DNA from: Nocardiopsis ansamitocini
Lineage (GTDB): Bacteria > Actinomycetota > Actinomycetes > Streptosporangiales > Streptosporangiaceae
Reading direction: 5' to 3'
Length of the DNA stretch: 64,000 nucleotides
NCBI RefSeq assembly: GCF_030268225.1
Contig: NZ_BSQG01000001.1
Coordinates: forward strand, 981,299-1,045,298
Under the pieces are notes generated by a model. It was not told the origin of the DNA, made no database searches, and saw only the letters and a program-made list of their open reading frames with translations. Each line of letters starts with the position of its first letter. Positions within the stretch are counted from its first letter, which is position 1. A program made the translations under genes and the position numbers. This document shows positions 12,591 to 27,695 of this stretch, one piece after another.

Positions 12591-12812
12591 CGGGCCCGCA
12601 GCGATCGGGACGCGGGTGACGGAGCGGCGAAAGTCGTACGGGCTCTTCCCCCTGCACGACAGCGATGGCACCATGAGTTACCAGACGATTCCTTTACGTG
12701 CTCGACCGCCATCCTCCCACCCCCGCCTTCCCAGCACCACGCCGTGGCCAACGCCCGCGCGCCGGCTGCCCCTTTCCTGCTGCTCGGCGGGGCCTTCCCC
12801 AAGGAGCTCCCC

Positions 12813-13835
12813 TTGCCCGCGCGCCCCGCTGCACGCCTCCTCGTCGGCGGCCTGACCGTTGCCGCGCTGCTCGCACCTGGTGCGACCGCTCATGCCGACG
12901 GCTCCGCCGACGACGCCGCCTCCGCGACAACGACAGTGGGCCTTCACAACGCCTACGAGAAAGCCAAGTTCGACTACCTCGCCGACGCACTGGACTCCGG
13001 CTCGGGACTGGTGGAGATCGACGTATGGACCGATGACCTGATCGGCGCGTGGCGGGTCAACCACGACCTGGTGGGCCAGCAGAACAATTGTGTCGGCGCC
13101 ACCGATCCGGCCGGACTCCGCTCGGGGAACGCCAACGGTAATCTGCGGGCCTGCCTGACCGACATGCGCACCTGGCACGAAGCGACCCCCGATCACCAGG
13201 CCGTCGTGGTCAAGGTCGAGATGAAGGACGGGTTCTACGGCCGGGGCGGACTGGGTCCCGCCGAATTCGACGACCTGGTGGCCGCGACGCTCGGCGACGC
13301 CGTCTATCGACCGGCGGACCTGCTGGGCGACCACCCCGATCTGGATTCCGCGGCCCGATCGGGCGACTGGGACTCCCTGGCCGGCCGGTTCCTGATCGAA
13401 CTGGTCCCGGGAACCTTCGAGCAGAGAAACCCTTTCGACACCCTGTGGACCGACGAGGAGTACGGGCGGCATCTGCGCGATCTTTCCGAAAACGGCACGC
13501 TCGGCTCCGCAACGGCCTTTCCCGCTGTCCTGGGTGCAGCGTCGGGCGACCCGCGCACCCGCTACCCCGAGGACCTCAGGCCGTGGTTCGTGGTCTTCGA
13601 CGGCAGCGCGACCAGCTATCTGAACGGAATCGACACCGGCTGGTACGTCGAGAACAACTACTTGCTGGTCATGACGGGCGCACACAGTGTGTCACCGGAG
13701 ATCAGCGCGACCGGTCCGAGCGAGCAGGAGGCAGCGGACCGCGTGGCACTGCTGGCAGCGGCCGGGGCGACCACCGTGACCAGCGACTGGTCCGATCTCC
13801 CCACGGTGCTGGGTTCGGTGCTCCCCCGCGGCTAG
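12813..13835 (+). CDS. Secreted phosphatidylinositol-specific phospholipase C-type protein (calcium-dependent class)
   Basis: 340 residues. TTG start directly after AAGGAG (six-base spacing) gives a clean signal peptide (LLVGGLTVAALLAPGATAHA, about 8-28); longer in-frame starts would bury it. The mature protein has the PI-PLC X-type barrel: first catalytic His H45 in GLHNAYEK with N46 as a metal ligand, E68 and D70 in VEIDVW, and second His H84 in WRVNHD. These match the calcium-dependent bacterial PI-PLC group (Streptomyces antibioticus type). Expected reaction: cleavage of phosphatidylinositol, or a similar phosphodiester, to diacylglycerol and an inositol phosphate. Located just before a secreted phospholipase A2 gene, suggesting joint lipid scavenging. 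Confidence 0.8.
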   Translation: MPARPAARLLVGGLTVAALLAPGATAHADGSADDAASATTTVGLHNAYEKAKFDYLADALDSGSGLVEIDVWTDDLIGAWRVNHDLVGQQNNCVGATDPAGLRSGNANGNLRACLTDMRTWHEATPDHQAVVVKVEMKDGFYGRGGLGPAEFDDLVAATLGDAVYRPADLLGDHPDLDSAARSGDWDSLAGRFLIELVPGTFEQRNPFDTLWTDEEYGRHLRDLSENGTLGSATAFPAVLGAASGDPRTRYPEDLRPWFVVFDGSATSYLNGIDTGWYVENNYLLVMTGAHSVSPEISATGPSEQEAADRVALLAAAGATTVTSDWSDLPTVLGSVLPRG

Positions 13836-15396: not shown

Positions 15397-16278
15397 CTAC
15401 TGAGACTGACATTGCGGACACCAATAAAGGGTCCGGCCGGCTAGTTCTTCCGCCTTGATCGGCGTACTACAGATCCGGCACGGTTCGCCCGTTCGGTAGC
15501 AGACGTAGAAGGCATCGGAGCGGGGTACCGGCCGGGCCGTGGGTTGGGCACGGTGCTCCGGGCGCGTGGTGATGATGCGACCGTCCCGGACGCCGTCCTC
15601 CAACAGGGCGGTCAGATCCGCCCACAGCACCTCCCACTCGGTGAGGTCCACGGCGCGTCCGGGACGATGCGGCTCGATTCCGGAGCGAAACAGCGACTCG
15701 GCCCGGTAGATGTTGCCGATCCCGGCGATGACGTCCTGACGCATCAGGAGGGCGGCGATCGTGGTCCGCGACTTGGCGACCACCGACCATGCCCGCTCGG
15801 GATCGGCGTCGTCGCGCAAGGGATCGGGCCCCAGGCGATCCTGGACGGCCTCCTTGCCCGAAACGTCGATCACTTCACAGGCGGCAGGCCCGCGCAGATC
15901 CGCCCATCCGCTGCGTCCGACGAAGCGGACGCGCACCGCCCCGGTCGGCGACGGGGCGACGACGAACCCGTCCGCCCCGCGCTCCAGGCGCTTGGGTTCG
16001 CTGTTCCCCTGCCGGGGCGCACCGAGACTGTGCTCGCCCTCGGAGTCACCGAACGTCCAGGCACCGTAGAGGCCCAAATGGACGCGCAGCCACGCCCCGG
16101 AGTCGAAACCGAGGAAGAGGTGCTTGCCGTGCGCTTCCGCAACCGCGAGCACCCGGTTGTCGATCAGACGGGCCCCGTCCGCGAACCGTCCTTGCGGGCT
16201 GCTCACCCGCAACCGTTGGCCGCCGTAGGTCTTCGCAAAATGGGTCGCCAGCCGATGCAGTGTGTGGCCTTCGGGCAC
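15397..16278 (-). CDS. nei: Endonuclease VIII-type DNA glycosylase (Fpg/Nei family)
   Basis: 293 residues. Bifunctional base-excision glycosylase/AP lyase family. The start PEGHT provides the catalytic N-terminal Pro and Glu after Met removal; HT in place of the ELP found in Fpg puts it with Nei. The helix-two-turn-helix region contains the motif GIGNIYRAESLFRSG. The C-terminal zinc finger is complete, with Cys pairs in CRIC and CPQC. GTG start, as expected for the invariant MPEG start. It repairs oxidised pyrimidines, acting on DNA in the cytoplasm. It is divergent from the fructose operon regulator with a 250-bp gap. Confidence 0.9.
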   Translation of the reverse strand: MPEGHTLHRLATHFAKTYGGQRLRVSSPQGRFADGARLIDNRVLAVAEAHGKHLFLGFDSGAWLRVHLGLYGAWTFGDSEGEHSLGAPRQGNSEPKRLERGADGFVVAPSPTGAVRVRFVGRSGWADLRGPAACEVIDVSGKEAVQDRLGPDPLRDDADPERAWSVVAKSRTTIAALLMRQDVIAGIGNIYRAESLFRSGIEPHRPGRAVDLTEWEVLWADLTALLEDGVRDGRIITTRPEHRAQPTARPVPRSDAFYVCYRTGEPCRICSTPIKAEELAGRTLYWCPQCQSQ

Positions 16279-16528: not shown

Positions 16529-17290
16529 ATGCACGCGGCCGAGCGTCACCAGCGAATTCTGACGCGCGCCCGCGAGGAAGGACGGGTCGAGGTCAAAGAC
16601 CTGGCGTCGCGGCTGTCGGTCACTCCCGAGACCATCCGGCGCGACCTGACCTCCCTTGACCGGCGCGGCCTGCTGCACCGGCTGCACGGCGGCGCAGTAC
16701 CGACCGGTCAATTACCCGCAAATCCGGGAGTCGGCGGACGCGAGGAGACGCGCTCCGCAGAAAAGGGGCGCATCGCCAGGGCTGCCCTGGCCCAGGTCCC
16801 CGACAACGGCACGGTCATCCTCGACTCGGGGACGACCACCGGGCGTATCGCCGACCTGCTCCCCGCCGACCGCGAGTTGACCGTGGTCACCCACTCCGTC
16901 CCAATCGCAGCCAAACTGGCCCGCAACCCTGCCATCACACTCCACCTTCTCGGCGGCCGGGTGCACGGGCGCACAATGGCTGCCGTAGGACCGTGGGCCT
17001 TCGGTGCGCTCGACGGCCTGTTCGTCGACACGGCGTTCATCGGGGCGGACGCGATCTGTGCAACCCGAGGGCTGAGCACCGCGGAAGCGGACGAGGCCCA
17101 GATCAAACGGGCACTGATCACGGCCGCGCGACGCACCGTTCTGCTGGCCGATCGGACCAAGTTCGGTCGGACGGAATCCGCATATTTTTCCCCCATCGAA
17201 GACATCGACCTCGTCATCTGCGACTCGGGCCTGGACACCGGGGTGGCGGAGGAGATCGAGGCGGCCGGACCACGAATCGAGTTCGCATGA
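16529..17290 (+). CDS. DeoR family regulator of fructose operon
   Basis: 253 residues. N-terminal winged helix (about 3-57, RQRI-type start AERHQRILTRARE, then LSVTPETIRRDLTSLDRRGLLHR in parts LSVTPETIRRDL and LHRLHGGA) and a C-terminal DeoR sugar-phosphate sensor domain with NGTVILDSGTTTGRIADLL, LLGGRVHG and FIGADAI. Probably binds fructose 1-phosphate or another hexose phosphate and represses this operon. Its stop codon overlaps the fruK start (ATGA at 17287-17290), so the two are translationally coupled. Preceded by a promoter and GAAAC direct repeats, which argues for autoregulation. The fructose link is inferred from fruK and ptsH downstream. Confidence 0.9.
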   Translation: MHAAERHQRILTRAREEGRVEVKDLASRLSVTPETIRRDLTSLDRRGLLHRLHGGAVPTGQLPANPGVGGREETRSAEKGRIARAALAQVPDNGTVILDSGTTTGRIADLLPADRELTVVTHSVPIAAKLARNPAITLHLLGGRVHGRTMAAVGPWAFGALDGLFVDTAFIGADAICATRGLSTAEADEAQIKRALITAARRTVLLADRTKFGRTESAYFSPIEDIDLVICDSGLDTGVAEEIEAAGPRIEFA

Positions 17291-18237
17291 TCTTGACCGT
17301 CACCCCCAACCCCAGCGTCGACCGAACCCTGGAGATCTCCGCCCTGGAGCGCGGCGAGGTGCTGCGGGCACGTGTCGCCCGGGCCGACCCGGGCGGGAAA
17401 GGGGTCAACGTCTCACGTGCGCTGTGCGGAGCCGGCGTGGAGACCACCGCGATCCTCCCCGTCGGCGGCACCGAGGGAGCCCAGCTCACCGCACTGCTGA
17501 CCGAACGTCAGGTGCCGGCCGTCGCCGTCCCCATCTCCGGATCGACCCGCAGCAACATCACCGTTACCGAGGCAGACGGCACCACGACGAAGCTCAACGT
17601 CACCGGTCCCACGCTCAGCGAGGAAGAGACTGCTGCGCTGCTGGCCGCGGTGGACGCCGAACTCGCCCGCGGCCCGCGCTGGCTGGTGGCCGCAGGCAGT
17701 CTTCCCTCCGGTGCGCACTCCGACTTCTACGTGCGTCTGGCCGAACGGGCAGCAGCACACGGTGTGCCCATCGCCCTGGACACCTCCGAGGCCCCGCTGG
17801 AAAGCGCTGCCAAGCACGGGACGCTGTCCCTGCTCAAGCCCAACCACGAGGAACTGTCCGACCTCCTCGGCCGCCCCCTGCCCACGCTCGGTGACGTCGT
17901 CACCGGCGCACGCGAGGTCCTGAACTGGGGCAACGAAGCAGCACTCGTGACCCTGGGCGGACACGGCGCGCTGCTGGTGCTCAAGGACCAGTGCTGGCTG
18001 GCCAAGGGGCCCTCGGTCGTGCCCCGCAGCACCGTGGGCGCGGGCGACTGCTCCCTTGCCGGCTACCTCTCAGCCGTCGACGCAGCCCCTGAGGACCGGC
18101 TGCGCAACGCGGTTGCCTGGGGCACGGCAGCGGTTGCCCTGCCCGGTACGACCGTGCCCACCGCATCCGAGGTGGACCCCGGTGCCGTGCAGGTCAGCAC
18201 CGACCCCGATCCCGATCTGGTGGTGCGGGAACTCTGA
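17287..18237 (+). CDS. fruK: 1-phosphofructokinase
   Basis: 316 residues, PfkB sugar kinase fold. Converts fructose 1-phosphate and ATP to fructose 1,6-bisphosphate. Start ILTVTPNPSVDRT and the glycine signature GGKGVNVSRAL are diagnostic of FruK/LacC-type enzymes. The catalytic base and anion hole are in STVGAGDCSLAGYL (GAGD Asp), and KPNHEEL is the usual helix near the ATP site. Overlaps the regulator's stop codon by four bases and is followed 73 bp later by the HPr gene. In Streptomyces the same regulator-kinase pair is followed by the fructose EIIABC gene; that gene is absent here. Confidence 0.92.
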   Translation: MILTVTPNPSVDRTLEISALERGEVLRARVARADPGGKGVNVSRALCGAGVETTAILPVGGTEGAQLTALLTERQVPAVAVPISGSTRSNITVTEADGTTTKLNVTGPTLSEEETAALLAAVDAELARGPRWLVAAGSLPSGAHSDFYVRLAERAAAHGVPIALDTSEAPLESAAKHGTLSLLKPNHEELSDLLGRPLPTLGDVVTGAREVLNWGNEAALVTLGGHGALLVLKDQCWLAKGPSVVPRSTVGAGDCSLAGYLSAVDAAPEDRLRNAVAWGTAAVALPGTTVPTASEVDPGAVQVSTDPDPDLVVREL

Positions 18238-18310
18238 CCGCACCCGCCCCGACGACCAACGGCCCGGCACCCGCCGATGCCTGATCCCCCCACTCACACC
18301 AAGGAGAACA

Positions 18311-18580
18311 ATGCCGCAGCGAACCGCCACGATCGGAGCGTCCGTCGGTCTGCACGCCCGCCCCGCCACCCTCTTCGTGCAGGCGGCCACGGCCACCGGA
18401 CTGCCCGTCACCATCGCCAAGGAGGGCGGCGACCCTGTTGACGCCCGCAGCCTGCTGTCCGTCATGGCCCTGGGCGTCGGCAGCGGTGCCAAGGTCGTGC
18501 TGAGCGCCGAGGGAGACGACGCCGACGCCAAGCTCGACGAGCTCGCCCAGCTCCTGGAGACCGACCTGGACGCGGTCTAA
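18311..18580 (+). CDS. ptsH: Phosphocarrier protein HPr
   Basis: 89 residues, full-length HPr. The phosphorylatable His15 lies in VGLHARPAT, and the conserved Ser of the regulatory site is S47 (ARSLLSVMALGV). HPr passes phosphate from enzyme I to sugar-specific EII proteins. Actinobacterial HPrs usually are not regulated by an HPr kinase, so S47 may be structural. ATG with an ideal AAGGAG seven bases upstream. Cotranscribed with the DeoR gene and fruK. No enzyme I or EII gene is in the window, so its partners must be encoded elsewhere. Confidence 0.93.
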   Translation: MPQRTATIGASVGLHARPATLFVQAATATGLPVTIAKEGGDPVDARSLLSVMALGVGSGAKVVLSAEGDDADAKLDELAQLLETDLDAV

Positions 18581-18583
18581 CCC

Positions 18584-18623
18584 CCGGGCCGGTCCCGTTC
18601 CTTCAGGAACGGGACCGGCCCGG
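18584..18623. terminator. Very strong bidirectional hairpin overlapping a stop codon
   Basis: 18-bp perfect GC-rich stem with a 4-nt loop (TTCA). It terminates the fructose operon on the plus strand and the large caspase-helicase gene on the minus strand; the latter's stop codon (18603-18605) lies in the loop and its last six codons form one arm. Confidence 0.85.
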
Positions 18624-21600
18624 AGTGCAGTTCTCGGCAAGGACGATCTCCTTCGCCAGGGCTTCGGGCTCGTGCAGGCAGCGCCAGACCGGAGCGCGGC
18701 GCACCGGCAGCCCCGAGAGCTCGCGCAACCGCCGCTGACGCTTGGCCAGGCCACGCAGTTCCCGACCGTCCCGGGAGCCGTCCAACAGCACCAGGACGGT
18801 GCCGTCGGGAGTGCGCACCCGGAGGTCGACACGATGGCCGTGCACAAAGGACCCGACCACGACCTCGTCCGCCATCCCCTGCAAGATCTGGATCAGGTCG
18901 GCGAGTGTTTCCGGGGGACGCTCGTGCTGCACGTCCGCGACGATCCCGGCCAGATCGGCCAGCACTCCGCCCCGCCACAGCCAAGACGCACGGTCGCCCA
19001 CCACCACGATCCGAGATGCGGCCGTGCCCAGTAACGCAGTCCACTGCTCGACGACGGCCGATGCCGGCGTCAACGGACCGCCGTCGGGACAACTCCCGGA
19101 CAGGACCGGGGAAACCACCACGGCGTCGTAGACGCGGGAGCCGAAGGCGGATGCGGCCGCGACATGGATCTCGCGGGTGAACCGCGAGCACCCCACCAGT
19201 TGGCGCAGCAGGGTGCACTGCGCGCGCGACCCGGCGGCAACCCCCAGGGTCGCGTCCACCGGCAGCAGGGTGTCCAGTTCCTGGAGCACGCCTACCGCCC
19301 GACGGGCCTCCTCCCTGTTGACGTAGGACTCGCCGATCGTCCTCTCGCACTCCCCGGGAACATCGCGCCATTCCACCGCTTGCCCTCCGGCTGCGACGAG
19401 TGTGCGGGAATCGGTGAGAACCGTGAGCCGTCCGCCATAACAGCCGCGGTCGGCCGCGGCCGCGATCAGCGGATGGGAGCCCTCATGCTCGTCCAACCAG
19501 TGCACCCTGCCCCCCGCCCCGGCAGTCGCCCGGGCCAACGCACGGTAGGCGGAGCTTCCCGGCCCGCCGAGAGCGCGTTCGACCAGCCATCGTTCACCGA
19601 GCCCGGCGCGCTCGCGCCGGGTACGCTCCTCGTGCTCGGTCAGCGTCGGAAGAGGCGCCGGGCGGGCGGGATCACCGATGACCAGTGCGCGCTTGGCCCG
19701 ATAGAGCAGCGGCACGACAGCGGCGACATCGGACAGGTCCGCCTCGTCGATGACCACCAGGTCGAACAGTCCCGGCTGCGGTGGCAGGCCGCGGGCCCGG
19801 CCGGTCTGCACCGCCCATGCCGGGACCGCGGTGAGCAATCGTTTGAAGCCCGACCAGGCCGTGTTTCCGGACTGCCAGTTCAAGCATTCCAGGCGGTTCA
19901 GGACCGCTTGCCGTCCTTGGGTCAGCCGGCGGCCCACCACCGCCGAAAGGTAGTCGGCGCTGGAGAGCCGGTGACACCCCGCGACCGCTTCCAGGTCACT
20001 GTAGAGGTCGTCCAACGACGTGGTCCGGTGGTAGCGGTCCAGGGTCGCGCGCCACACCCGCTCGATACGGGCGATCTCACACAGCCGCGCCAGACTGCGG
20101 GAGTCGGTGGACACACCGAGCCCGCGCCGGATGACCGAGCGCCGAAGCGGCCTGAGCAGCCCCCAACCCGCGGCACGCTCGCTTCGACGCAGCCAGTCCT
20201 GGGGGCGTCCGCCTCGAAACAACGTCTCGGGATCCCAGCCGGCGTCGACGACCCTGCCCCGTGCCGTGGCGAGGAGTGCGAGGTCGCGCTCGATCCTGGC
20301 CAGAGCGTCGATGGCGCGCCGGGCGTCACGGATGCCGGTCCAGTCGTCGCGCAGCCCCATCTCCTGCACGGTCGGAACTCCACCGCCGGCGGAACGGGAG
20401 AGCAACGTGTTGAGGACGGCGGATTCACGGCTGAGGTGGCCGGGTTCCCCCGTGCGCACCACCAGATGCTCTACTGTCCTTCCCGCTCGCACGACGAAGT
20501 CGTCAGCGGCCTGGGCCGTTGGAGCTGCGAAAAGCACGGCCTGTCCGGCTGCCACGGCCGTGTGCACCGCTGCAAGGGCGAGTTGGCCGGCGCCGGTTCC
20601 CGGCGGAGCTGCCACGACGGTGAGGCGGCGGTTCATCGCGGAGACCAGTACGCCGGTCTGGGCTTCGCTGAGCCCACCTGCGGCCAGGAGCAGAACCGGG
20701 TCGTCGAGCTCGGGGCGCTGCTCCCCGGCGAGGGCGGACAGCGCGGTACCGCGAAGACGTCCTGGGTCGACGCCCTCTCCGCAGGAACCGTCGAGATCGG
20801 CCAACAGGCCGGCATCGCCGGTGAGGTGGGAGCCGACCCTGAAGAGGATCGCGAGATTGTGCGCCCCGGAACGCGTGTCGTCAGGAGCCAGGGCGGCGGC
20901 GAGCCGCGACGGAAGGATGTCGTCCGCGCGTTCGATGTCCAGGTGGGCGAGCACCCGGCGGGTGGTGGCCGCGAGGTCGGGTACGCCTCTGGCGTCGCGC
21001 TGCTCGTGCCACCACTTGCGCAGACCGGTCAACTCGCTCTCGGTGTAGGCGGTGTCGGCCTCCAGCAGTGCCGGGTTGATCTCGGGGGGCGATACCGCGC
21101 GCAAGCGTTTGACGCCGTTGTCGTCGACGACCTCGGCGTCCACCACGAACAGGGGCGCGGCGGTGCGGTGGTCCGGATTCTCGGTGCGGACCACGACCAG
21201 GGGGTAGCCATAGCGCAGGGTCTCCCTGTTGACACCAGCAGTATGCGCGACCAGGAGCTCTTCGGGGGTTGCTTCGGGAGCCGAACCCGTACCGCTGATG
21301 AGCGTCTCGCGACCTGCCGGGCGAAACGCGTGTCCGTCCGGGACGGCGAGATCCACCAGGTGTTTCAGCACGGCGGTCCGGTCGAGCCCGTCCCGCAGAT
21401 AGGTGAGGAGGGAGAGCCAGCGGGCGTTGGTGAAGGGGGCGTTGGGGTCCTCCCGGTCACCGCGCCCCGAGGTGGAACGCCCCCATCCCGAGGCCGGAGC
21501 GGCGTCCAGTTCGTGGTCGCGGCGCAATCGAAGCGCCCGCGCAGCCAACTCCGCACCGAAAGCGGTCACCTCGGTCTGGGGGTCGGGCCCGTGTCCGGGG

Positions 21601-22568
21601 AACACGCGGGGTCCGGCTGGATCGGTGCACCCGCCGTCGTCGAGTAGGTGGTCGGCGACTGAGACGGTCTCCTCGGCCAGCACGGTGCCGCAGCCCACGG
21701 AACGCAGCTCAACCCGAAGGCGCTCGCGCAGTTCGCCACGGTCGCGGCACTCACCGAGCAGCCCTGCCGTGACCACCGCGACCTCTGCGAGGAAGTCGGC
21801 CTCCGGGCCGCGGGCAGCGCTCAGGGGAGCCGCGGGCCGTTGTTGGACGGGAAGAGAACCGGGAACAGACCGGATGAGTCCGACCGGGGGGACCTCGGTG
21901 ATGAATACCGGGCTCCGCCCGCCCGCGGCATGTTCGGCTAACAATCGCTCCTTGAGATCGTCACTGTCGATCCAGCCGTCCCCGTCGCGGTCACGGGCGG
22001 TTCCGCCCAGGGCTGCGGCGACGACCTGGGCGAAAGAGGCATCGGTTTCTCCTGCCGATGATCCGTTTCCGGCACTGCCGGCGAACACCACGCACGAGGC
22101 GATCGGGAGACATCTGCGCAGGTCGAGTTCGGGAACGGTCTCGGCACGCCCATCGGGGCCGTCGTCGAACCATCCGCTGTACTGGCAGTCCAGGAGCAGC
22201 AGGACGGAACGCGCGGATCCGCGCTCGATCGCCTCGGCCAGGACGTCGAGGGCGACTCCCGCTGTCTCCGGCCGGCGACCGCTGCCAGCGGCGAAGAAGT
22301 GCAGTGAGCCCTCGCCGTTCTTGACGATGCGCCCGCTCAACGCCAGAAGAAGCGTGTCGTCGGGACCCGCTGTGGCGAAAAAGATCCGCAACTCGTCGAC
22401 GAGTCTGGACCGCGAGGGGTCCAGGAGGGTGCGAACGTCGCCGAAGTCCGCACCGACCAAGGCGGACCGCAGCGTCCGGCTGCGCGACCGTGCGTGGTCG
22501 GGGCCGCCGGTGGCCTGATTAGTGCCCTCAACGGCGACCAATAGCGCCCGGCGCTCCCCGGATCTCAT
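18603..22568 (-). CDS. Caspase-like / degenerate SF1-helicase / nuclease-like fusion protein
   Basis: 1321 residues. ATG at 22568 is chosen because GGAGG precedes it by seven bases; a GTG 20 codons upstream has no good site. Residues 5-225 resemble bacterial caspase-like (C14) domains: RRALLVAVEG strand, nucleophile-type C128 in LLLLDCQYSGW, but the usual GHG catalytic His is replaced (LLLALSGRI, R80). An EF-hand-like loop DRDGDGWIDSDD is at 193-204. Residues about 630-1200 look like a UvrD/Upf1-type SF1 helicase: motif I APPGTGAGQL (Lys replaced by A660), motif II VVIDEAD (941-944), motif III VIGDPARP, and a motif VI region lacking the usual Arg (TALLGTAAS). The tail (about 1220-1315) resembles Vsr/MTES-type nuclease domains, also imperfect. 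Two roadblock genes lie upstream on the same strand. Likely a conflict or signalling protein; function inferred, not known. Confidence 0.7.
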   Translation of the reverse strand: MRSGERRALLVAVEGTNQATGGPDHARSRSRTLRSALVGADFGDVRTLLDPSRSRLVDELRIFFATAGPDDTLLLALSGRIVKNGEGSLHFFAAGSGRRPETAGVALDVLAEAIERGSARSVLLLLDCQYSGWFDDGPDGRAETVPELDLRRCLPIASCVVFAGSAGNGSSAGETDASFAQVVAAALGGTARDRDGDGWIDSDDLKERLLAEHAAGGRSPVFITEVPPVGLIRSVPGSLPVQQRPAAPLSAARGPEADFLAEVAVVTAGLLGECRDRGELRERLRVELRSVGCGTVLAEETVSVADHLLDDGGCTDPAGPRVFPGHGPDPQTEVTAFGAELAARALRLRRDHELDAAPASGWGRSTSGRGDREDPNAPFTNARWLSLLTYLRDGLDRTAVLKHLVDLAVPDGHAFRPAGRETLISGTGSAPEATPEELLVAHTAGVNRETLRYGYPLVVVRTENPDHRTAAPLFVVDAEVVDDNGVKRLRAVSPPEINPALLEADTAYTESELTGLRKWWHEQRDARGVPDLAATTRRVLAHLDIERADDILPSRLAAALAPDDTRSGAHNLAILFRVGSHLTGDAGLLADLDGSCGEGVDPGRLRGTALSALAGEQRPELDDPVLLLAAGGLSEAQTGVLVSAMNRRLTVVAAPPGTGAGQLALAAVHTAVAAGQAVLFAAPTAQAADDFVVRAGRTVEHLVVRTGEPGHLSRESAVLNTLLSRSAGGGVPTVQEMGLRDDWTGIRDARRAIDALARIERDLALLATARGRVVDAGWDPETLFRGGRPQDWLRRSERAAGWGLLRPLRRSVIRRGLGVSTDSRSLARLCEIARIERVWRATLDRYHRTTSLDDLYSDLEAVAGCHRLSSADYLSAVVGRRLTQGRQAVLNRLECLNWQSGNTAWSGFKRLLTAVPAWAVQTGRARGLPPQPGLFDLVVIDEADLSDVAAVVPLLYRAKRALVIGDPARPAPLPTLTEHEERTRRERAGLGERWLVERALGGPGSSAYRALARATAGAGGRVHWLDEHEGSHPLIAAAADRGCYGGRLTVLTDSRTLVAAGGQAVEWRDVPGECERTIGESYVNREEARRAVGVLQELDTLLPVDATLGVAAGSRAQCTLLRQLVGCSRFTREIHVAAASAFGSRVYDAVVVSPVLSGSCPDGGPLTPASAVVEQWTALLGTAASRIVVVGDRASWLWRGGVLADLAGIVADVQHERPPETLADLIQILQGMADEVVVGSFVHGHRVDLRVRTPDGTVLVLLDGSRDGRELRGLAKRQRRLRELSGLPVRRAPVWRCLHEPEALAKEIVLAENCTPGRSRS

Positions 22569-22661
22569 GGGCGGGCCTCCCCGCCGTGGTCCGGGATGGA
22601 CGTTCTGTCCGCCGCTACCATGTCGCACCTCTCACTCAACCGAAACCGATCGCAAAATTCA

Positions 22662-22882: not shown

Positions 22883-23359
22883 TCAGACCTCCAGGGTCTC
22901 CTCGATACCGCGCAGCCGGTGGCGAGCCATCGCAAGGTTCGACCGACCACGGTCCAACACCATGTAGATGAAGAGCCCCTGCCCCTTACGACTCGCCAGT
23001 GGCCGGATGATGTGGTATTGGGAACCCAGCGTGATCAGGATGTCCTCGATCGAATCATTCAGCCCGAGTTGGTCGATGGTGCGCATCTTGGCCCGGACCA
23101 CCTCGGTGTTTCCGGCCGCGGCCAGTGTGAGGTCCAGCGCCTTACTGGTGGTCAGCGACCCCAGCGACATACCGCTTCCGTAGTCGACGATCGAGGCACC
23201 CACCGCCCCGTCGATGGCCATCATTTCCTTGAGTCCGCTGTCCAGGTTCGCCATGTCGAGTCCTTCGAAAATTGAGGTCGATTCAGCAGGTTCCGGGGAG
23301 TCACCGTGAGGCTCCGGCCGCTTGGTCAGCAGCTTCTCGATACGGCGGAGAAGCCGCAT
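22883..23359 (-). CDS. Roadblock/LC7 domain protein (first of a pair)
   Basis: 158 residues as given. The roadblock/LC7 (MglB-like) domain begins at MANLDSGLKEMMAIDGAVGA and includes IVDYGSGMSLGSL, AAGNTEVVRAKMRTIDQLGL, SIEDILITLGSQYHIIRPL and FIYMVLDRGRSNLAMARH (each cited in part). Such proteins form dimers that act on small Ras-like GTPases or as scaffolds. Two starts are possible: ATG at 23359, two bases after the upstream stop (translational coupling), or ATG at 23254 with an ideal GAAGGA site, giving a 123-residue protein like most homologues. No GTPase gene is nearby. Probably cotranscribed with the next gene. Confidence 0.8.
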   Translation of the reverse strand: MRLLRRIEKLLTKRPEPHGDSPEPAESTSIFEGLDMANLDSGLKEMMAIDGAVGASIVDYGSGMSLGSLTTSKALDLTLAAAGNTEVVRAKMRTIDQLGLNDSIEDILITLGSQYHIIRPLASRKGQGLFIYMVLDRGRSNLAMARHRLRGIEETLEV

Positions 23360-23361
23360 AT

Positions 23362-23934
23362 TCAGGTCGCCTCGGCTCTCACGCCGAGACGGGTACCGCG
23401 CTGGGACACCGGCGGCGCGTAGAGCGACCGCTTCAATGCCCCCAGCACGCGGTGCAGGGTGTGCGCGTCAGGTCGGGTCCGGTCACGAACCGGACTGTGC
23501 GCCAATCGTTGGACATCGTTGCAGCGCCGCGGAAGTACCGGCGCGGCTTCCGCCTCGGCGACGGCGGTGACCCCGCGCACCAGCCGCCCCAGCGCACGCT
23601 GGGCAAGGGCGAGGTTGCCGGTGTCGCGCTCAAGTCGCAGCAACAGAAAACCGCGGTCACCCCCGGGGACTCGGGTGATCGCTGCGATCAGGTATCCCTG
23701 ACGGGCAGTGAGCACCACGTCCTCCAACTGCGTGGCGAAATCACCCGAGGCAGTTTCTGGGTTCTCGACGATGGCGCGCACGAGACCCTCGATTTCCCCG
23801 GCACCCCACCGCGAAACCTCGGATTCGTGGCCGAATTCGGCCACGACGCGACCAGTCGCACATTCCACTAGAGACACACTGCGCGCACCGGGTATGTCCA
23901 GTATTCCCTTCATGTCGTCGTTGATCGCGAGCAC
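23362..23934 (-). CDS. Roadblock/LC7-like protein (second of a pair)
   Basis: 190 residues, GTG start preceded by AAGGA. The N-terminal 120 residues follow the roadblock fold: MKGILDIPGARSVSLVECATG, RVVAEFGH, then DVVLTARQGYLIAAITRV and LLLRLERDTGNLALAQRAL (cited in parts). It has a basic, less ordered 65-residue C-terminal extension absent from its partner. Paralogous in layout to the protein at 22883, and separated from it by two bases, so the two may heterodimerise. An upstream ATG at 23994 in frame is possible but the extra 20 residues are not domain-like. Promoter presumably in the A+T-rich stretch upstream. Confidence 0.75.
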   Translation of the reverse strand: MLAINDDMKGILDIPGARSVSLVECATGRVVAEFGHESEVSRWGAGEIEGLVRAIVENPETASGDFATQLEDVVLTARQGYLIAAITRVPGGDRGFLLLRLERDTGNLALAQRALGRLVRGVTAVAEAEAAPVLPRRCNDVQRLAHSPVRDRTRPDAHTLHRVLGALKRSLYAPPVSQRGTRLGVRAEAT

Positions 23935-24633
23935 CGTGTTCCTTCGCTGTTTCCGAACGACGGCTCGCTCCAAAATGCCGGAGAGCCGTTGCAAACGTCA
24001 TCACTTCGGGACAGCAGCGAGAGTATTCCGATTCCGGGAATCGCGCAGGGGTTCGACCAAAAAAGCAATTCAACGCCGCAGCGTAACCATCAGATCACGC
24101 AATGGAGTAAATCCGGCTCACGATACAGAAATGACGGCCTCCGCCACCGCCGGCACCATCCGACATATCAGACCATGATCACCAAACGAGACGTATATCT
24201 CCCCGGAGGCCGGCCTCGAACACCCATCCACGGCACCCGAAAAACCATCAAAAGAGACGCTTTGAGCTGTGGATACTCAAAAACACCGAGCATCCCCCTC
24301 CGGAACCGGCCATCCAACTCGACTCCACTCGCTCCGCTCGCCCCAAAGTAGGGCACTTGCTTACAGAAAACCTGATCCTTCCACTATCCGGAAGACATTA
24401 AATCGAGTAATCAGCAGACCGTAACCTATAATTCACGTCCGCCGAAGAGAGGGCGAGCACTCGTATCGAATGCACCGGAGAGCATCAGACTGGCGAAAAA
24501 GTTTCAAATGAATACCGTCAGGGATACTGGTAACCACAGCAATTACGAACCTCACTGCGAACATCCCCTGAACCTGACCGGCAATTGCCCCACAGGACAC
24601 ATGGAGCACCTGGCCAGAGCATCGAAAAGCGTC
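23935..24633. other. A+T-enriched gene-free region
   Basis: About 700 bp without a convincing gene; ORFs here lack Shine-Dalgarno sites and coding bias. The stretch 24350-24660 is much richer in A+T than the rest of the window and contains a TATAAT hexamer at 24427-24432. It may hold the promoter for the roadblock pair and the remains of an insertion, or an unannotated RNA. I see no inverted terminal repeats. Confidence 0.4.
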
Positions 24634-26169
24634 TCACTCGTTATCGAGGCCGGATTTTTTCGAGAGAGCCGTGGCACCCGGTGGTTTTTTCAGGGCCAGC
24701 GGAATCTCTCTTTCCAGCATGCGCAAAGCCAACCAGAGCTCGGCCCGGTAATCGGGGTCGTTGAGGTCCCCGGGAAGAAGTTCGCGGATTCGCGTGAGCC
24801 GGTAGCGCAAGGTGTGCCGGTGGACTCCCAGCGCCTCGGCCGCGGCGTCCCATCTTCCCGACGCAGCCAAATAGGCACGCAAAGAGGCCAGGAGGTCGAT
24901 GGCTGAGCGGTGCACGAGCAACGGACGGAGCAGACCGTGCGCCAACCGGCTTCCCGACGGGGTGTCGAGCAGGCCGAGGAAACCGCCTGGCAGGTCCCCG
25001 TGGCGCACGAGTGCGCGCTCCTCGCTGCGCGCGAGGTCGAAGGCGCGTGCGGCCTGGGCCCTCGCGGCCGGAAGCTCGTCGAGGCCCGCGGGTTCGCCCG
25101 CTCCGACCGGCCCCCCCGTGAGCTCGGCCAGTACCCCCGCGGGGTCGGCCCCGGCTCCGCCGACGACCACGAAACACTCGTCGACCACACCGGTCAGACA
25201 GTCGTGGAAACGAGGGTCTCCGGACAACGGGGCAGCACTTCTATCGGTCAGCGCAACCGTCACAGGCTCTCGCGGGAGGGCCGAACGCAGTCCAGCAGTC
25301 CCTGGATCGTTTATCGCCACAGCTCCGTTGAGCAACGCCTCCAGGACGCCCTGGTGCATCTCCAACGCGCCGGGCAGACTGCGCTCCAGTTCCAGGGAAA
25401 GCAGGGAGATGGCCCCGTTGACGAGCATGCGCTCCTCGGCCCCCAGGGCTCGGGGCCCGCCCACGGCGATGAAGCCGTGAATACGTCCCGCTACTCCCAA
25501 CGGCTGTATCGAGACGGTTTGGCCGTCCTGGGACAATGAAGCGCTGGCGGGCTGGCGGGCAGCACCGAGCCTGCGCACTTCCGCGGTCAACCCCGCCCAG
25601 CGCGAAACCGCGTCGGGCGGCCTGGCGTGTCGGGGAGCTCCGTCCGGAGCCAGCAACAGCACCCAGCCGTCCAGCTCCGCACCCAGCCGGTCCACCACGG
25701 CCTCGGCTCCGCGCAAGGCCGCCTGGGTGAGCTGACGCTGTGCATCGAACGCTCTGCTCAATCCCTCGTACTCGTCTTTGGCCAAAAGCCGGGAAACCTC
25801 CTTCCCCACAGCGATGAAGGGGGTCTCCCGTGGAACAGCGATCAGCGGCAGTCCGAGGCGAGCCGCCGCGTCGACCAGTGCTTCCGGCACCTCCTCGTGG
25901 GCGACGCCGCAGCCGAAGCCCAGTCCGGCCACCCCGCGGTCGAGGAGACGGCGCACGTAGTCGTGGGCGGTGTCGTCTTCCTGCGGCCAACGCACCCCGG
26001 TCGTGAGAACGAGTTCGCCGCCCTCCAGATAGGGGGTGGGATCGGTGAGCTCGCTGACCGCCACCCAGCGCACGGTGTTGTCGAGATGGCCGTCCCCGCT
26101 GAGCAGCCGAAGGCGCAGACGTGGGGTCCGCAGGATCGCACCCAGGGTGGGCGGCACAGTGGGCGGCAC
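24634..26169 (-). CDS. PucR family transcriptional regulator (gabT-linked)
   Basis: 511 residues. N-terminal PucR ligand domain (about 8-125) with VRWVAVSELTDPTPYLEGGEL and TTGVRW in part, a central GGDEF-like/PAS-like region, and a C-terminal PucR HTH domain with LAASGRWDAAAEALGVHRHT followed by RYRLTRIREL. PucR regulators activate catabolism of purines, GABA, proline and related compounds. GTG start follows GAGGAG; a 12-bp tandem duplication (two copies of cactgtgccgcc) offers a second GTG four codons later. It is divergent from gabT with a 179-bp gap and therefore most likely controls GABA use. A second PucR is at 35686. Confidence 0.9.
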   Translation of the reverse strand: MPPTVPPTLGAILRTPRLRLRLLSGDGHLDNTVRWVAVSELTDPTPYLEGGELVLTTGVRWPQEDDTAHDYVRRLLDRGVAGLGFGCGVAHEEVPEALVDAAARLGLPLIAVPRETPFIAVGKEVSRLLAKDEYEGLSRAFDAQRQLTQAALRGAEAVVDRLGAELDGWVLLLAPDGAPRHARPPDAVSRWAGLTAEVRRLGAARQPASASLSQDGQTVSIQPLGVAGRIHGFIAVGGPRALGAEERMLVNGAISLLSLELERSLPGALEMHQGVLEALLNGAVAINDPGTAGLRSALPREPVTVALTDRSAAPLSGDPRFHDCLTGVVDECFVVVGGAGADPAGVLAELTGGPVGAGEPAGLDELPAARAQAARAFDLARSEERALVRHGDLPGGFLGLLDTPSGSRLAHGLLRPLLVHRSAIDLLASLRAYLAASGRWDAAAEALGVHRHTLRYRLTRIRELLPGDLNDPDYRAELWLALRMLEREIPLALKKPPGATALSKKSGLDNE

Positions 26170-26348
26170 AGTGGGCTCCTCGTGTCAGGCGGGCGGGGCA
26201 ATCAATCTGCCAAAACGGCTAACAACTCCACGAAATCCTATCCATCCCGGCAATAAGCCAGACCTGTCCCACACCGTAGTGTCAGGGCTGATCAGCACGG
26301 TCGTAGCGCATGCGCCGGGCCCGGTTCACGAGGGAGGAACACAGCATC

Positions 26349-27695
26349 ATGGCCACCAGCAACGCGGGGCTTCCGCAAAAACGCCGGATCGTCACCGAGA
26401 TCCCCGGCCCGAAGTCGAAGGCGCTTCAGGAGCGTCGCAGCAGAGCTGTCGCCAAGGGTGTGGGAAGTGTCCTGCCGGTCTACGTGGAGCGGGCCGACCG
26501 CGGCATCGTCCAGGACATCGACGGCAACGCGTTCATCGACTTCGGCTCGGGCATCGCGGTGACGAACGTGGGCAATGCCAACCCCGAAGTGGTGGCGCGA
26601 GCAAGCGAGCAACTCGCCAGGTTCACGCACACCTGTTTCATGGTCAATCCCTATGAGGGCTACGTGGAGGTCTGCGAGGCCCTCAACCGGATCAGTCCGG
26701 GCACCCACGAGAAGCGCTCGATCCTGCTGAACTCCGGCGCCGAGGCGGTGGAGAACGCGGTCAAGATCGCGCGCAACGCCACCGGACGCCAGGCGGTCGT
26801 GGTGTTCGACCACGCCTACCACGGACGAACCAACCTGACGATGGCACTGACCGCGAAGAACATGCCGTACAAGCAGGGCTTCGGTCCGTTCGCGGGCGAG
26901 GTCTACCGGATGCCGATGGCCTACCCGTTCCGCTGGCCGACCGGGCCCGAGAATTGCGGCCCAGAGGCCGCGGCGCAGGCCATCGACCAGATCACCAAGC
27001 AGATCGGCGCGGAGAACGTGGCCGCTGTGCTCATCGAACCGATCCAGGGCGAGGGCGGTTTCATCGAGCCGGGGGCGGGATTCCTGCCCGCGATCGTCGA
27101 GTTCTGTCGGGCCAATGGGATCGTGTTCGTCGCCGACGAGGTACAGACCGGGTTCGCGCGTACCGGTGACCTCTTCGCGTGCGAGCACGAGGACGTCGTC
27201 CCCGACCTGATCTGCACGGCGAAGGGCATCGCCGGTGGTCTTCCCCTGGCCGCGGTGACCGGACGCTCCGAGCTGATGGACGCCGTGCACGGAGGCGGCT
27301 TGGGCGGTACCTACGGCGGAAACCCTGCGGCATGTGCGGCCGCACTCGCCTCCCTGGAGACGATCGAGAACGACAGGCTCACCGAGCGGGCCCGCGCCAT
27401 CGGCGCGACCATGCTGTCGCGTCTGCGTGCACTGGCCGAACGCCATGATGTGATCGGCGACGTGCGCGGACGCGGTGCGATGATCGCGATCGAGCTGGTG
27501 GCGGGCAACGGTGACCGGACACCCAACCCGACCGTACTGGCCGAGGTCCTGAAGCACTGCCACGCAAACGGCCTCATCCTGCTCAGCGCCGGCACCTACG
27601 GCAACGTGCTGCGGATGCTGCCGCCCCTGGTGATCAGCGACGAACTGCTGGACGAAGGTCTTTCGGTCATCGAGGATGCCTTCGCGCGACTGTAA
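26349..27695 (+). CDS. gabT: 4-aminobutyrate aminotransferase
   Basis: 448 residues, class III PLP aminotransferase. Moves the amino group of GABA to 2-oxoglutarate, giving succinate semialdehyde and glutamate. PLP lysine K292 in CTAKGIAGG, D263 in FVADEVQTGF binding the pyridine nitrogen, LNSGAEAVENAVKIAR at the phosphate site, and the GabT-like start RIVTEIPGPKS. ATG follows GAGGAA. The gene is monocistronic: two strong hairpins follow, and no succinate-semialdehyde dehydrogenase gene is adjacent, so the second step is encoded elsewhere. It could also act on other omega-amino acids. Confidence 0.92.
   Translation: MATSNAGLPQKRRIVTEIPGPKSKALQERRSRAVAKGVGSVLPVYVERADRGIVQDIDGNAFIDFGSGIAVTNVGNANPEVVARASEQLARFTHTCFMVNPYEGYVEVCEALNRISPGTHEKRSILLNSGAEAVENAVKIARNATGRQAVVVFDHAYHGRTNLTMALTAKNMPYKQGFGPFAGEVYRMPMAYPFRWPTGPENCGPEAAAQAIDQITKQIGAENVAAVLIEPIQGEGGFIEPGAGFLPAIVEFCRANGIVFVADEVQTGFARTGDLFACEHEDVVPDLICTAKGIAGGLPLAAVTGRSELMDAVHGGGLGGTYGGNPAACAAALASLETIENDRLTERARAIGATMLSRLRALAERHDVIGDVRGRGAMIAIELVAGNGDRTPNPTVLAEVLKHCHANGLILLSAGTYGNVLRMLPPLVISDELLDEGLSVIEDAFARL

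What the first reader, a model, noticed from the sequence alone, without database searches (positions are those of the whole stretch)
18603..22568. Caspase-like domain fused to SF1-helicase core and nuclease-like tail
One 1321-residue protein joins a caspase-like N-terminus (C128 in DCQYSG), an SF1-helicase-like middle and a Vsr/MTES-like nuclease-like end. Caspase-like effectors joined to sensing ATPases are a known theme in bacterial conflict systems, but this combination, next to roadblock genes, is not one I recognise as described. Seen: the motifs. Inference: a defence or cell-death role.
Basis: partly seen in the sequence, partly recalled or inferred. Interest (0 to 1): 0.85.

Follow-up and report, generated by a model that had tools for sequence, protein, structure and literature searches.

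The report
Disarmed caspase-helicase from a conflict system
This bacterial protein descends from a predicted self-destruct or defence effector that joined a caspase to a helicase, but it has lost key active-site residues of both parts and has no copy of the usual partner gene beside it, and relatives keep it at a fixed place in the chromosome, so it probably works by binding other molecules rather than by cutting or unwinding.

Summary
The protein is real (minus strand, ATG 22568 to stop 18603, 1321 aa) and has the three parts described: caspase-like, SF1-helicase-like and endonuclease-fold tail. The architecture is not new: 60 of 63 actinobacterial loci with intact helicase motifs have a small EACC1-like gene upstream, as in the EACC1-caspase "System 4" of Kaur et al. 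2020. What is unusual is that the window protein is disarmed. The caspase His is Arg and the catalytic Cys is Gln ("C128" is the neighbouring, non-catalytic cysteine); Walker A has lost Lys and Ser. In its clade all 7 aligned members with a caspase lost both dyad residues and all 26 lost the Walker A Lys. None of 27 disarmed loci, nor the window, has a detectable EACC1-like gene. The clade is monophyletic, lies beside a Nei/Fpg glycosylase gene in 23 of 25 loci, was shown in 36 of 40 genomes of one genus and evolves under purifying selection. A second, less complete disarmament in Jiangellaceae is independent. Best reading: a domesticated, binding-only descendant of a conflict effector, here beside two roadblock-like genes. 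The tail's catalytic status and any partner are unknown.

The parts
18603..22568 (-). disarmed caspase / SF1-helicase / endonuclease-like protein, 1321 aa from ATG 22568 (an upstream in-frame GTG at 22628 gives 1341 aa)
21939..22550 (-). pseudo-caspase domain (residues 27-230, GTG numbering)
   Evidence: NF047832 E 3e-14; hhalign to intact relatives 99.2%; caspase fold Z about 19 in the model of the T. fusca orthologue
22329..22331 (-). codon of R100, where intact relatives have the His of SGHG
18990..21431 (-). pseudo-helicase, residues 400-1213, UPF1/IGHMBP2-like (domain borders set by eye)
20583..20612 (-). degenerate Walker A, AAPPGTGAGQ (intact sister copies: TGAPGTGKSE)
19728..19757 (-). 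Walker B region, VVIDEADLSD: D-E kept in the window protein, in none of the other 25 clade members aligned
19854..20348 (-). helical insert, residues 761-925 (borders set by eye): 10 of the 31 positions newly fixed in the disarmed clade, candidate new binding surface
18606..18989 (-). restriction-endonuclease-fold tail, residues 1214-1341; two conserved Asp but no Lys of (D/E)xK, in relatives with intact helicase as well
22883..23359 (-). RB1, roadblock-like 158 aa; 314 bp upstream of the ATG
   Evidence: no Pfam hit
23362..23994 (-). RB2, roadblock-like 210 aa, 2 bp from RB1; C-terminal PDxxTLxRVLxAL motif shared with orthologues
   Evidence: no Pfam hit
15397..16278 (-). Nei/Fpg-type DNA glycosylase, downstream marker of the conserved locus
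24634..26169 (-). PucR-type regulator, upstream marker of the locus
26310..27695 (+). class III aminotransferase (gabT-like), upstream marker of the locus

Best explanation
A domesticated pseudoenzyme. An ancestral EACC1-caspase-SF1-helicase-endonuclease-like conflict effector in the Nocardiopsidaceae lineage lost its EACC1 partner, its caspase dyad and its ATPase motifs, and was kept as a resident gene at one chromosomal locus. Shown here: the losses, the single origin of the clade, the fixed locus and purifying selection. Inferred: it now acts by binding. The pseudo-caspase would be a docking module (absent from 19 of the 26 aligned clade members). The ATP-dead helicase core would be a rigid scaffold, with its helical insert and the endonuclease-like tail as contact surfaces. 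The roadblock-like pair beside it in some branches, among them the window's, would be its regulatory input in place of EACC1. The output, a regulatory or stress-related complex, is unknown.
For: Walker A Lys absent in 26 of 26 clade members aligned, and both caspase dyad positions changed in 7 of 7 that have the domain. EACC1-like gene upstream in 60 of 63 loci with intact helicase motifs and in 0 of 27 disarmed loci, 22 of them of this clade and 5 of the Jiangellaceae-type group; none among 623 ORFs of the window. Clade one side of a branch, SH-aLRT 100, next to 9 intact rows of the same family, on a tree with motif columns masked. Nei/Fpg gene on the same strand in 23 of 25 loci, against 0 of 69 other loci, within the flanks held. 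Disarmed copy shown by its Walker A in 36 of 40 genomes of one genus. dN/dS 0.15-0.65 per domain in 12 pairs. Of 30 positions lost, 29 lie in the two helicase domains; of 31 newly fixed, 10 lie in the helical insert, the only part with data that is as conserved in the disarmed clade (0.64) as in intact copies of the same family (0.60). Both folds are still predicted for the T. fusca orthologue. Roadblock-like genes upstream in the window, L070, L071 (about 1 kb away), L017 and L050.
Against: No partner or phenotype is known. Roadblock-like genes were not found beside most of the clade, and RB1 was found in 18 of 25 disarmed-copy genomes that I chose; G063, G108, G133, G154, G078, G095 and G165 lack it. 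Neither roadblock-like protein hits Pfam, and a profile comparison with true Robl_LC7 proteins was weak (3.4% probability). dN/dS is higher than in four intact pairs (0.08-0.32), so constraint is partly relaxed. The window protein keeps D-E of Walker B. The tail's two Asp are kept, so it may not be inert. The whole-protein model is of an orthologue 46% identical, not of the window protein.
Confidence: 0.62

Rival explanations
1. Decoy or antidote: the disarmed copy binds EACC1, intact caspase-helicase copies or the invader molecules they sense, and so blocks or tunes the active system (dominant negative).
For: It derives from the sister group of intact copies of the same family. At least 12 genomes carry both forms: G021, G069, G095, G165, G175, G177, G182, G192, G201, G206, G208 and N. 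endophytica (L072, L091); G156 has a broken intact-type copy. Kaur et al. [quoted passage not shown]
Against: The window genome has no other copy and no other hit to caspase_w_EACC1. The four genomes of the Thermobifida genus showed only the disarmed copy. No EACC1-like gene was found beside the 27 disarmed copies tested.
Confidence: 0.2
2. A slowly decaying relic with no function, kept by chance.
For: Motifs are lost, the caspase is missing from 19 of 26 aligned members, and dN/dS is higher than in intact pairs.
Against: Long open frames across the clade (959 codons and more), dN/dS well under 1 in every real domain, presence in 36 of 40 genomes of one genus and newly fixed residues.
Confidence: 0.08
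3. A still active defence or cell-death effector that works through the nuclease-like tail, the pseudo-caspase and pseudo-helicase serving only as sensor and regulator.
For: The tail has an endonuclease fold (3hrl Z 9.7, 3r3p Z 8.8), with two Asp conserved in intact and disarmed copies alike.
Against: No Lys of (D/E)xK; stable inheritance at one locus.
Confidence: 0.1

Closest known systems
EACC1-caspase two-gene conflict system (System 4, Kaur et al. 2020, PMC7159879; passages read)
   Same: N-terminal caspase of the EACC1-associated type followed by a variable effector part; intact sister copies have the small EACC1-like gene just upstream
   Different: No EACC1-like gene, caspase dyad lost, helicase motifs lost, fixed locus beside nei and, in part of the clade, roadblock-like genes
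SF1 helicases of the UPF1/IGHMBP2/Dna2 group
   Same: Two-domain SF1 fold (IGHMBP2 4b3g Z 21.2 over 401 residues, orthologue model); AAA_11 hit
   Different: Walker A Lys and Ser, motif Ia, motif V and the window's motif VI Arg lost (motif roles recalled)
Cyanobacterial pseudo-orthocaspases (PMC6426788; search listing and start of abstract only)
   Same: Bacterial caspase homologues with a lost His-Cys dyad
   Different: Those carry Tyr and Ser; here the two positions hold varied residues in the 7 clade members and the domain is fused to a dead helicase. The Jiangellaceae-type group (His to Tyr in 5 of 5, Cys kept in 4 of 5) is nearer to them
c-FLIP, an animal pseudo-caspase regulator (function recalled; its complex with caspase-8, 3h11, is a row)
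   Same: Caspase fold without protease residues, kept as a binding protein
   Different: Only an analogy; unrelated architecture and organism

Membership tests
EACC1-caspase conflict system | EACC1 gene directly 5' of the caspase gene | tested here: not met
   No profile hit among 623 window ORFs; 0 of 27 disarmed loci against 60 of 63 with intact helicase motifs. That the small gene is EACC1 rests on order, size and a TM-like stretch; no relevant model hit the four scanned in Pfam or the two in NCBIfam
EACC1-caspase conflict system | N-terminal caspase of the EACC1-associated type | tested here: met
   By homology: NF047832 E 3e-14, but 53 bits under the 140-bit cut-off; hhalign 99.2%
EACC1-caspase conflict system | catalytic His-Cys dyad | tested here: not met
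   R100 and Q149
SF1 helicase (active) | Walker A GK[ST] | tested here: not met
   AAPPGTGAGQ
SF1 helicase (active) | Walker B D-E | tested here: met
   DE kept in the window protein, alone among 26 clade members
SF1 helicase (active) | SF1 two-domain fold | tested here: met
   Pfam AAA_11; fold of the T. fusca orthologue
PD-(D/E)XK / Vsr-like nuclease | restriction-endonuclease fold of the tail | tested here: met
   Model pLDDT 86.8, order of helices and strands, 3hrl Z 9.7 over 90 residues; best Foldseek E only 0.004
PD-(D/E)XK / Vsr-like nuclease | catalytic acidic pair plus Lys | tested here: inconclusive
   Asp 1268 and 1283 conserved, Lys absent, in relatives with intact helicase too
Roadblock/LC7 (RB1, RB2) | match to PF03259 | tested here: not met
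   No Pfam hit; colinear but weak to Robl_LC7; homologues elsewhere sit beside a true Robl_LC7 gene in two loci tested
Housekeeping helicase | match to a named helicase equivalog with a working ATPase | tested here: not met
   No NCBIfam helicase model reached its cut-off; Walker A lost

The most novel reading that the evidence does not exclude
A predicted suicidal conflict effector was disarmed and domesticated at least twice in actinobacteria, each time without its EACC1 partner. In the Nocardiopsidaceae lineage it became a resident signalling scaffold whose new surface is the helical insert and whose input was taken over by a roadblock-like switch pair.
Probability: 0.3. Interest if true: 0.78.

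Novelty: new variant of a known kind. Interest (0 to 1): 0.6.

Why it matters
Kaur et al. note inactive domains in such systems and propose decoy roles for them (passages). Here one lineage shows the absence of the partner gene, the protease dyad and the ATPase motif together, followed by stable inheritance at one chromosomal place, with an independent, less complete parallel in another family and intact copies still present in sister species. That makes the step from dangerous effector to resident protein testable, and gives a bacterial case to set beside animal pseudo-caspases.

Tried and rejected
Active caspase with C128 as nucleophile: rejected, because the aligned catalytic position is Gln and the His is Arg. 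Novel architecture: rejected, because intact relatives share it. Housekeeping helicase: rejected. Mobile or patchy gene: not supported for the disarmed clade. One origin of both disarmed groups: rejected by AU test, p 4.1e-5, on the quick tree. Coupled loss across the tree: only 2 independent pairs, cannot reach significance; the Fisher value ignores kinship. Roadblock identity by profile: weak. PADLOC gave only partial hits of the window protein to helicase parts and one caspase model at E 0.04.

Papers: (EACC1 + caspase) gave two papers, of which I read passages. Searches (20 of 82 listed; none; 20 of 32 listed; 13, the same two plus unrelated; 1) showed no further paper on this fusion or on roadblock with caspase in bacteria. 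One search gave pseudo-orthocaspase papers, seen as listing and abstract starts only. I found the disarmed lineage in none of these; subscription papers and preprints are not held.

Rows dropped: merged 11 identical loci; one search left out L109, L111, L142, L146 and L148 (broken or edge ORFs); one search set aside 4 loci without a readable Walker A and those with under 600 bp upstream (L122, L134, L054, L073, L080). In 57 of the 60 the EACC1-like frame ends within 140 bp of the core frame or overlaps it; in L095, L124 and L142 it is 1.0-1.3 kb off because the core frame is broken. Exceptions to the EACC1 rule: L023 (no caspase), L112 (intact, none detected), L127 (caspase dyad lost, helicase intact). 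In one search the caspase columns of L020 and L075 are spurious upstream reading; such columns gave dN/dS 1.01 for two pairs without the domain (L052-L074, L020-L067). In one search my frame choice was wrong for 5 of 40 rows; one search repeated all 40 with tblastn.
Full report
What is there. The finding lies on the minus strand. Residue numbers below count from the GTG. NCBIfam caspase_w_EACC1 matches residues 27-230 (E 3e-14, 53 bits, curated cut-off 140). Pfam AAA_11 (1.3e-7) is over its cut-off, AAA_12 (6e-5) is under it, and no Pfam caspase model hit. IGHMBP2 is the best solved relative by sequence. The tail has no profile hit.

Folds. AlphaFold of the tail (residues 1214-1341, 71-row alignment) has mean pLDDT 86.8 and the helix/strand order of the restriction-endonuclease fold. 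The best PDB matches are NGO0050 (3hrl, Z 9.7, rmsd 2.5 over 90 residues), I-Bth0305I (3r3p, Z 8.8) and the FASTKD4 module (9gek, Z 8.4, rmsd 5.7), with Foldseek E no better than 0.004. The window protein exceeds the size limit, so the whole architecture was modelled on the Thermobifida fusca orthologue (L079, 934 aa, 46% identical; pLDDT 84.8, pTM 0.82). Its residues 1-230 align with caspases and MALT1 (Z about 19) and 247-834 with IGHMBP2 and UPF1 (Z about 20-21).

Relatives. Searches with the window protein gave matches in 9 of 60 relatives and in 25 of 150 genomes of the family, 13 of 68 genera, intact and disarmed forms together. A profile scan of named genomes kept the best 80 of 272 loci, all 80 in Actinomycetota. 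After merging identical loci, 99 relatives plus the window protein were compared. Those with intact helicase motifs typically have SGHG and DCC in the caspase, GK[ST], STNN, DEA, the EH(Y/F)RCHP motif, FQG and TRA. Five of five intact caspase-bearing proteins scanned hit Pfam Peptidase_C14, AAA_11 and AAA_12.

The window protein is disarmed. Walker A reads AAPPGTGAGQ. The STNN, motif V and motif VI Arg positions are changed too; D-E of Walker B is kept, alone among the 26 clade members aligned. In the caspase the His is Arg (R100). The family's invariant Cys is the second of DCC and aligns with the Cys of MALT1's LDMC (its catalytic role is recalled); here it is Gln (Q149). The 7 aligned clade members that have the caspase domain all lost both dyad residues (His to R/T/T/G/Y/T/V, Cys to Q/D/G/H/R/G/G in WIN, L053, L055, L070, L071, L078, L079). 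All 26 lack the Walker A Lys. The tail keeps Asp 1268 and Asp 1283 but has no Lys of (D/E)xK; relatives with an intact helicase look the same, so I do not call the tail dead.

EACC1. The parent is recognisable: Kaur et al. 2020 (PMC7159879, passages read) describe a two-gene system with a 5' small membrane-type gene (EACC1) and a 3' caspase protein with up to 50 alternative C-terminal domains. A profile seeded on four such upstream genes and extended over three rounds found one upstream in 60 of 63 loci with intact helicase motifs and at least 600 bp of upstream sequence, and in 0 of 27 disarmed loci: 22 of the window's clade and 5 of a Jiangellaceae-type group. None of 623 window ORFs hit it. 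That the small gene is EACC1 is inferred from order, size and a TM-like stretch; no relevant model hit those scanned. The three exceptions are L023 (no caspase), L127 (caspase dyad lost, helicase intact) and L112 (intact, none found).

Two events. On a tree with the motif columns removed, the 26 disarmed rows form one side of a branch (SH-aLRT 100), next to 9 intact rows of the same family (joint group 99). Five other rows (four Jiangellaceae and one metagenome bin) form another group (100), next to intact, mostly Streptomyces, rows. Holding the two groups together is rejected (p-AU 4.1e-5). The second group is less fully disarmed: His is Tyr in 5 of 5, the Cys is kept in 4 of 5, and the Walker A Lys is still there in L118, L132 and L135 although Ser/Thr is lost. 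Both groups lack EACC1, but two events cannot give a significant test of coupling. All five of the second group have the same kind of downstream gene (by eye).

Fixed and maintained. The Nei/Fpg gene lies on the same strand near 23 of 25 disarmed clade loci (in L071 5.8 kb away) and was found near none of the 69 other loci within the flanks held; a gabT-like gene of at least 71% identity is nearby in 16 of the 21 loci with more than 1 kb upstream. In genus g68, which holds named Nocardiopsis genomes, 39 of 40 genomes have a match. A disarmed copy was shown by its Walker A in 36 of 40 (32, and G069, G110, G135 and G156); the other four are G190 (no match), G180, G189 and G194. Intact copies were read in 9 of the 40 (8, G069); not every match was fetched. 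At least 12 genomes carry both forms. The window genome has one copy and no other caspase_w_EACC1 hit. Nei-Gojobori dN/dS in 12 disarmed pairs is 0.15-0.65 per domain, 0.31-0.38 for the pseudo-caspase in three Thermobifida-genus pairs; four intact pairs give 0.08-0.32 and two Jiangella pairs 0.13-0.40. The gene is constrained, somewhat less than its intact kin.

Where the new constraint lies. Of 30 positions fixed in intact copies and lost in the disarmed clade, 29 are in the two helicase domains, mostly at helicase motifs. Of 31 newly fixed positions, 10 are in the helical insert (W763, G797, W798, F804, P809, H886 and R901 in all 26 rows). The insert is the only part with data that is at least as conserved in the disarmed clade (0.64) as in 9 intact copies of the family (0.60) (domain borders set by eye). 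I therefore propose a binding surface there; that is inference.

Roadblock-like neighbours. RB2 and RB1 lie 2 bp apart and end 314 bp before the window gene's ATG. Orthologues of both lie upstream in L070 and, about 1 kb away, in L071; one member lies upstream in L017 and L050. L053 and L055, of the genus that holds the named Thermobifida, have only a small ORF with RB2's C-terminal motif (E 1e-4). In other genomes of the family RB1 relatives sit with a DUF4388-like protein and a Robl_LC7 protein (three loci by eye; Robl_LC7 confirmed by Pfam in two), but RB1 and RB2 themselves miss Pfam. RB1 was found in 18 of 25 disarmed-copy genomes that I chose and in 4 of the 38 genomes that have no disarmed copy; kinship is not controlled. 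The link is plausible for some branches, not general.

Reading. The best-supported account is a conflict effector turned resident pseudoenzyme. The losses, clade, locus and constraint are shown; the binding role, the helical surface and the roadblock input are inferred. A decoy role is the main rival; it fits species with both forms but not the window genome or the Thermobifida genus, where only the disarmed form was found.

Noticed in passing
window 16529-18580: A DeoR regulator, a 1-phosphofructokinase-type PfkB and an HPr-domain protein lie between the disarmed gene and nei in the window; in many relatives nei follows directly.
   Followed up: partly
L048 4499-5620; also L053, L055, L059, L066 upstream of the core gene: A protein of about 370-410 aa with signal-like and C-terminal TM-like stretches precedes the disarmed gene in these five loci (cluster 14); function unknown.
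   Followed up: no
L163 5024-7071, L166 4510-6736, L161 4521-7012: A unit of an RB2-like protein, a DUF4388-like protein, a Robl_LC7 protein and an RB1-like protein recurs in these genomes of the window's family; RB1 and RB2 families hit no Pfam model.
   Followed up: partly
L127 7572-11150 (Pseudonocardia lacus): Possible intermediate: caspase dyad lost and no EACC1-like gene found, but helicase motifs intact, so the caspase and EACC1 may go first.
   Followed up: partly
L023 (G038): A relative without caspase and without a detected EACC1-like gene but with an intact helicase.
   Followed up: no
window 12744-13835: A 363 aa ORF with a weak PI-PLC-C1 hit (5e-4, below the cut-off).
   Followed up: no
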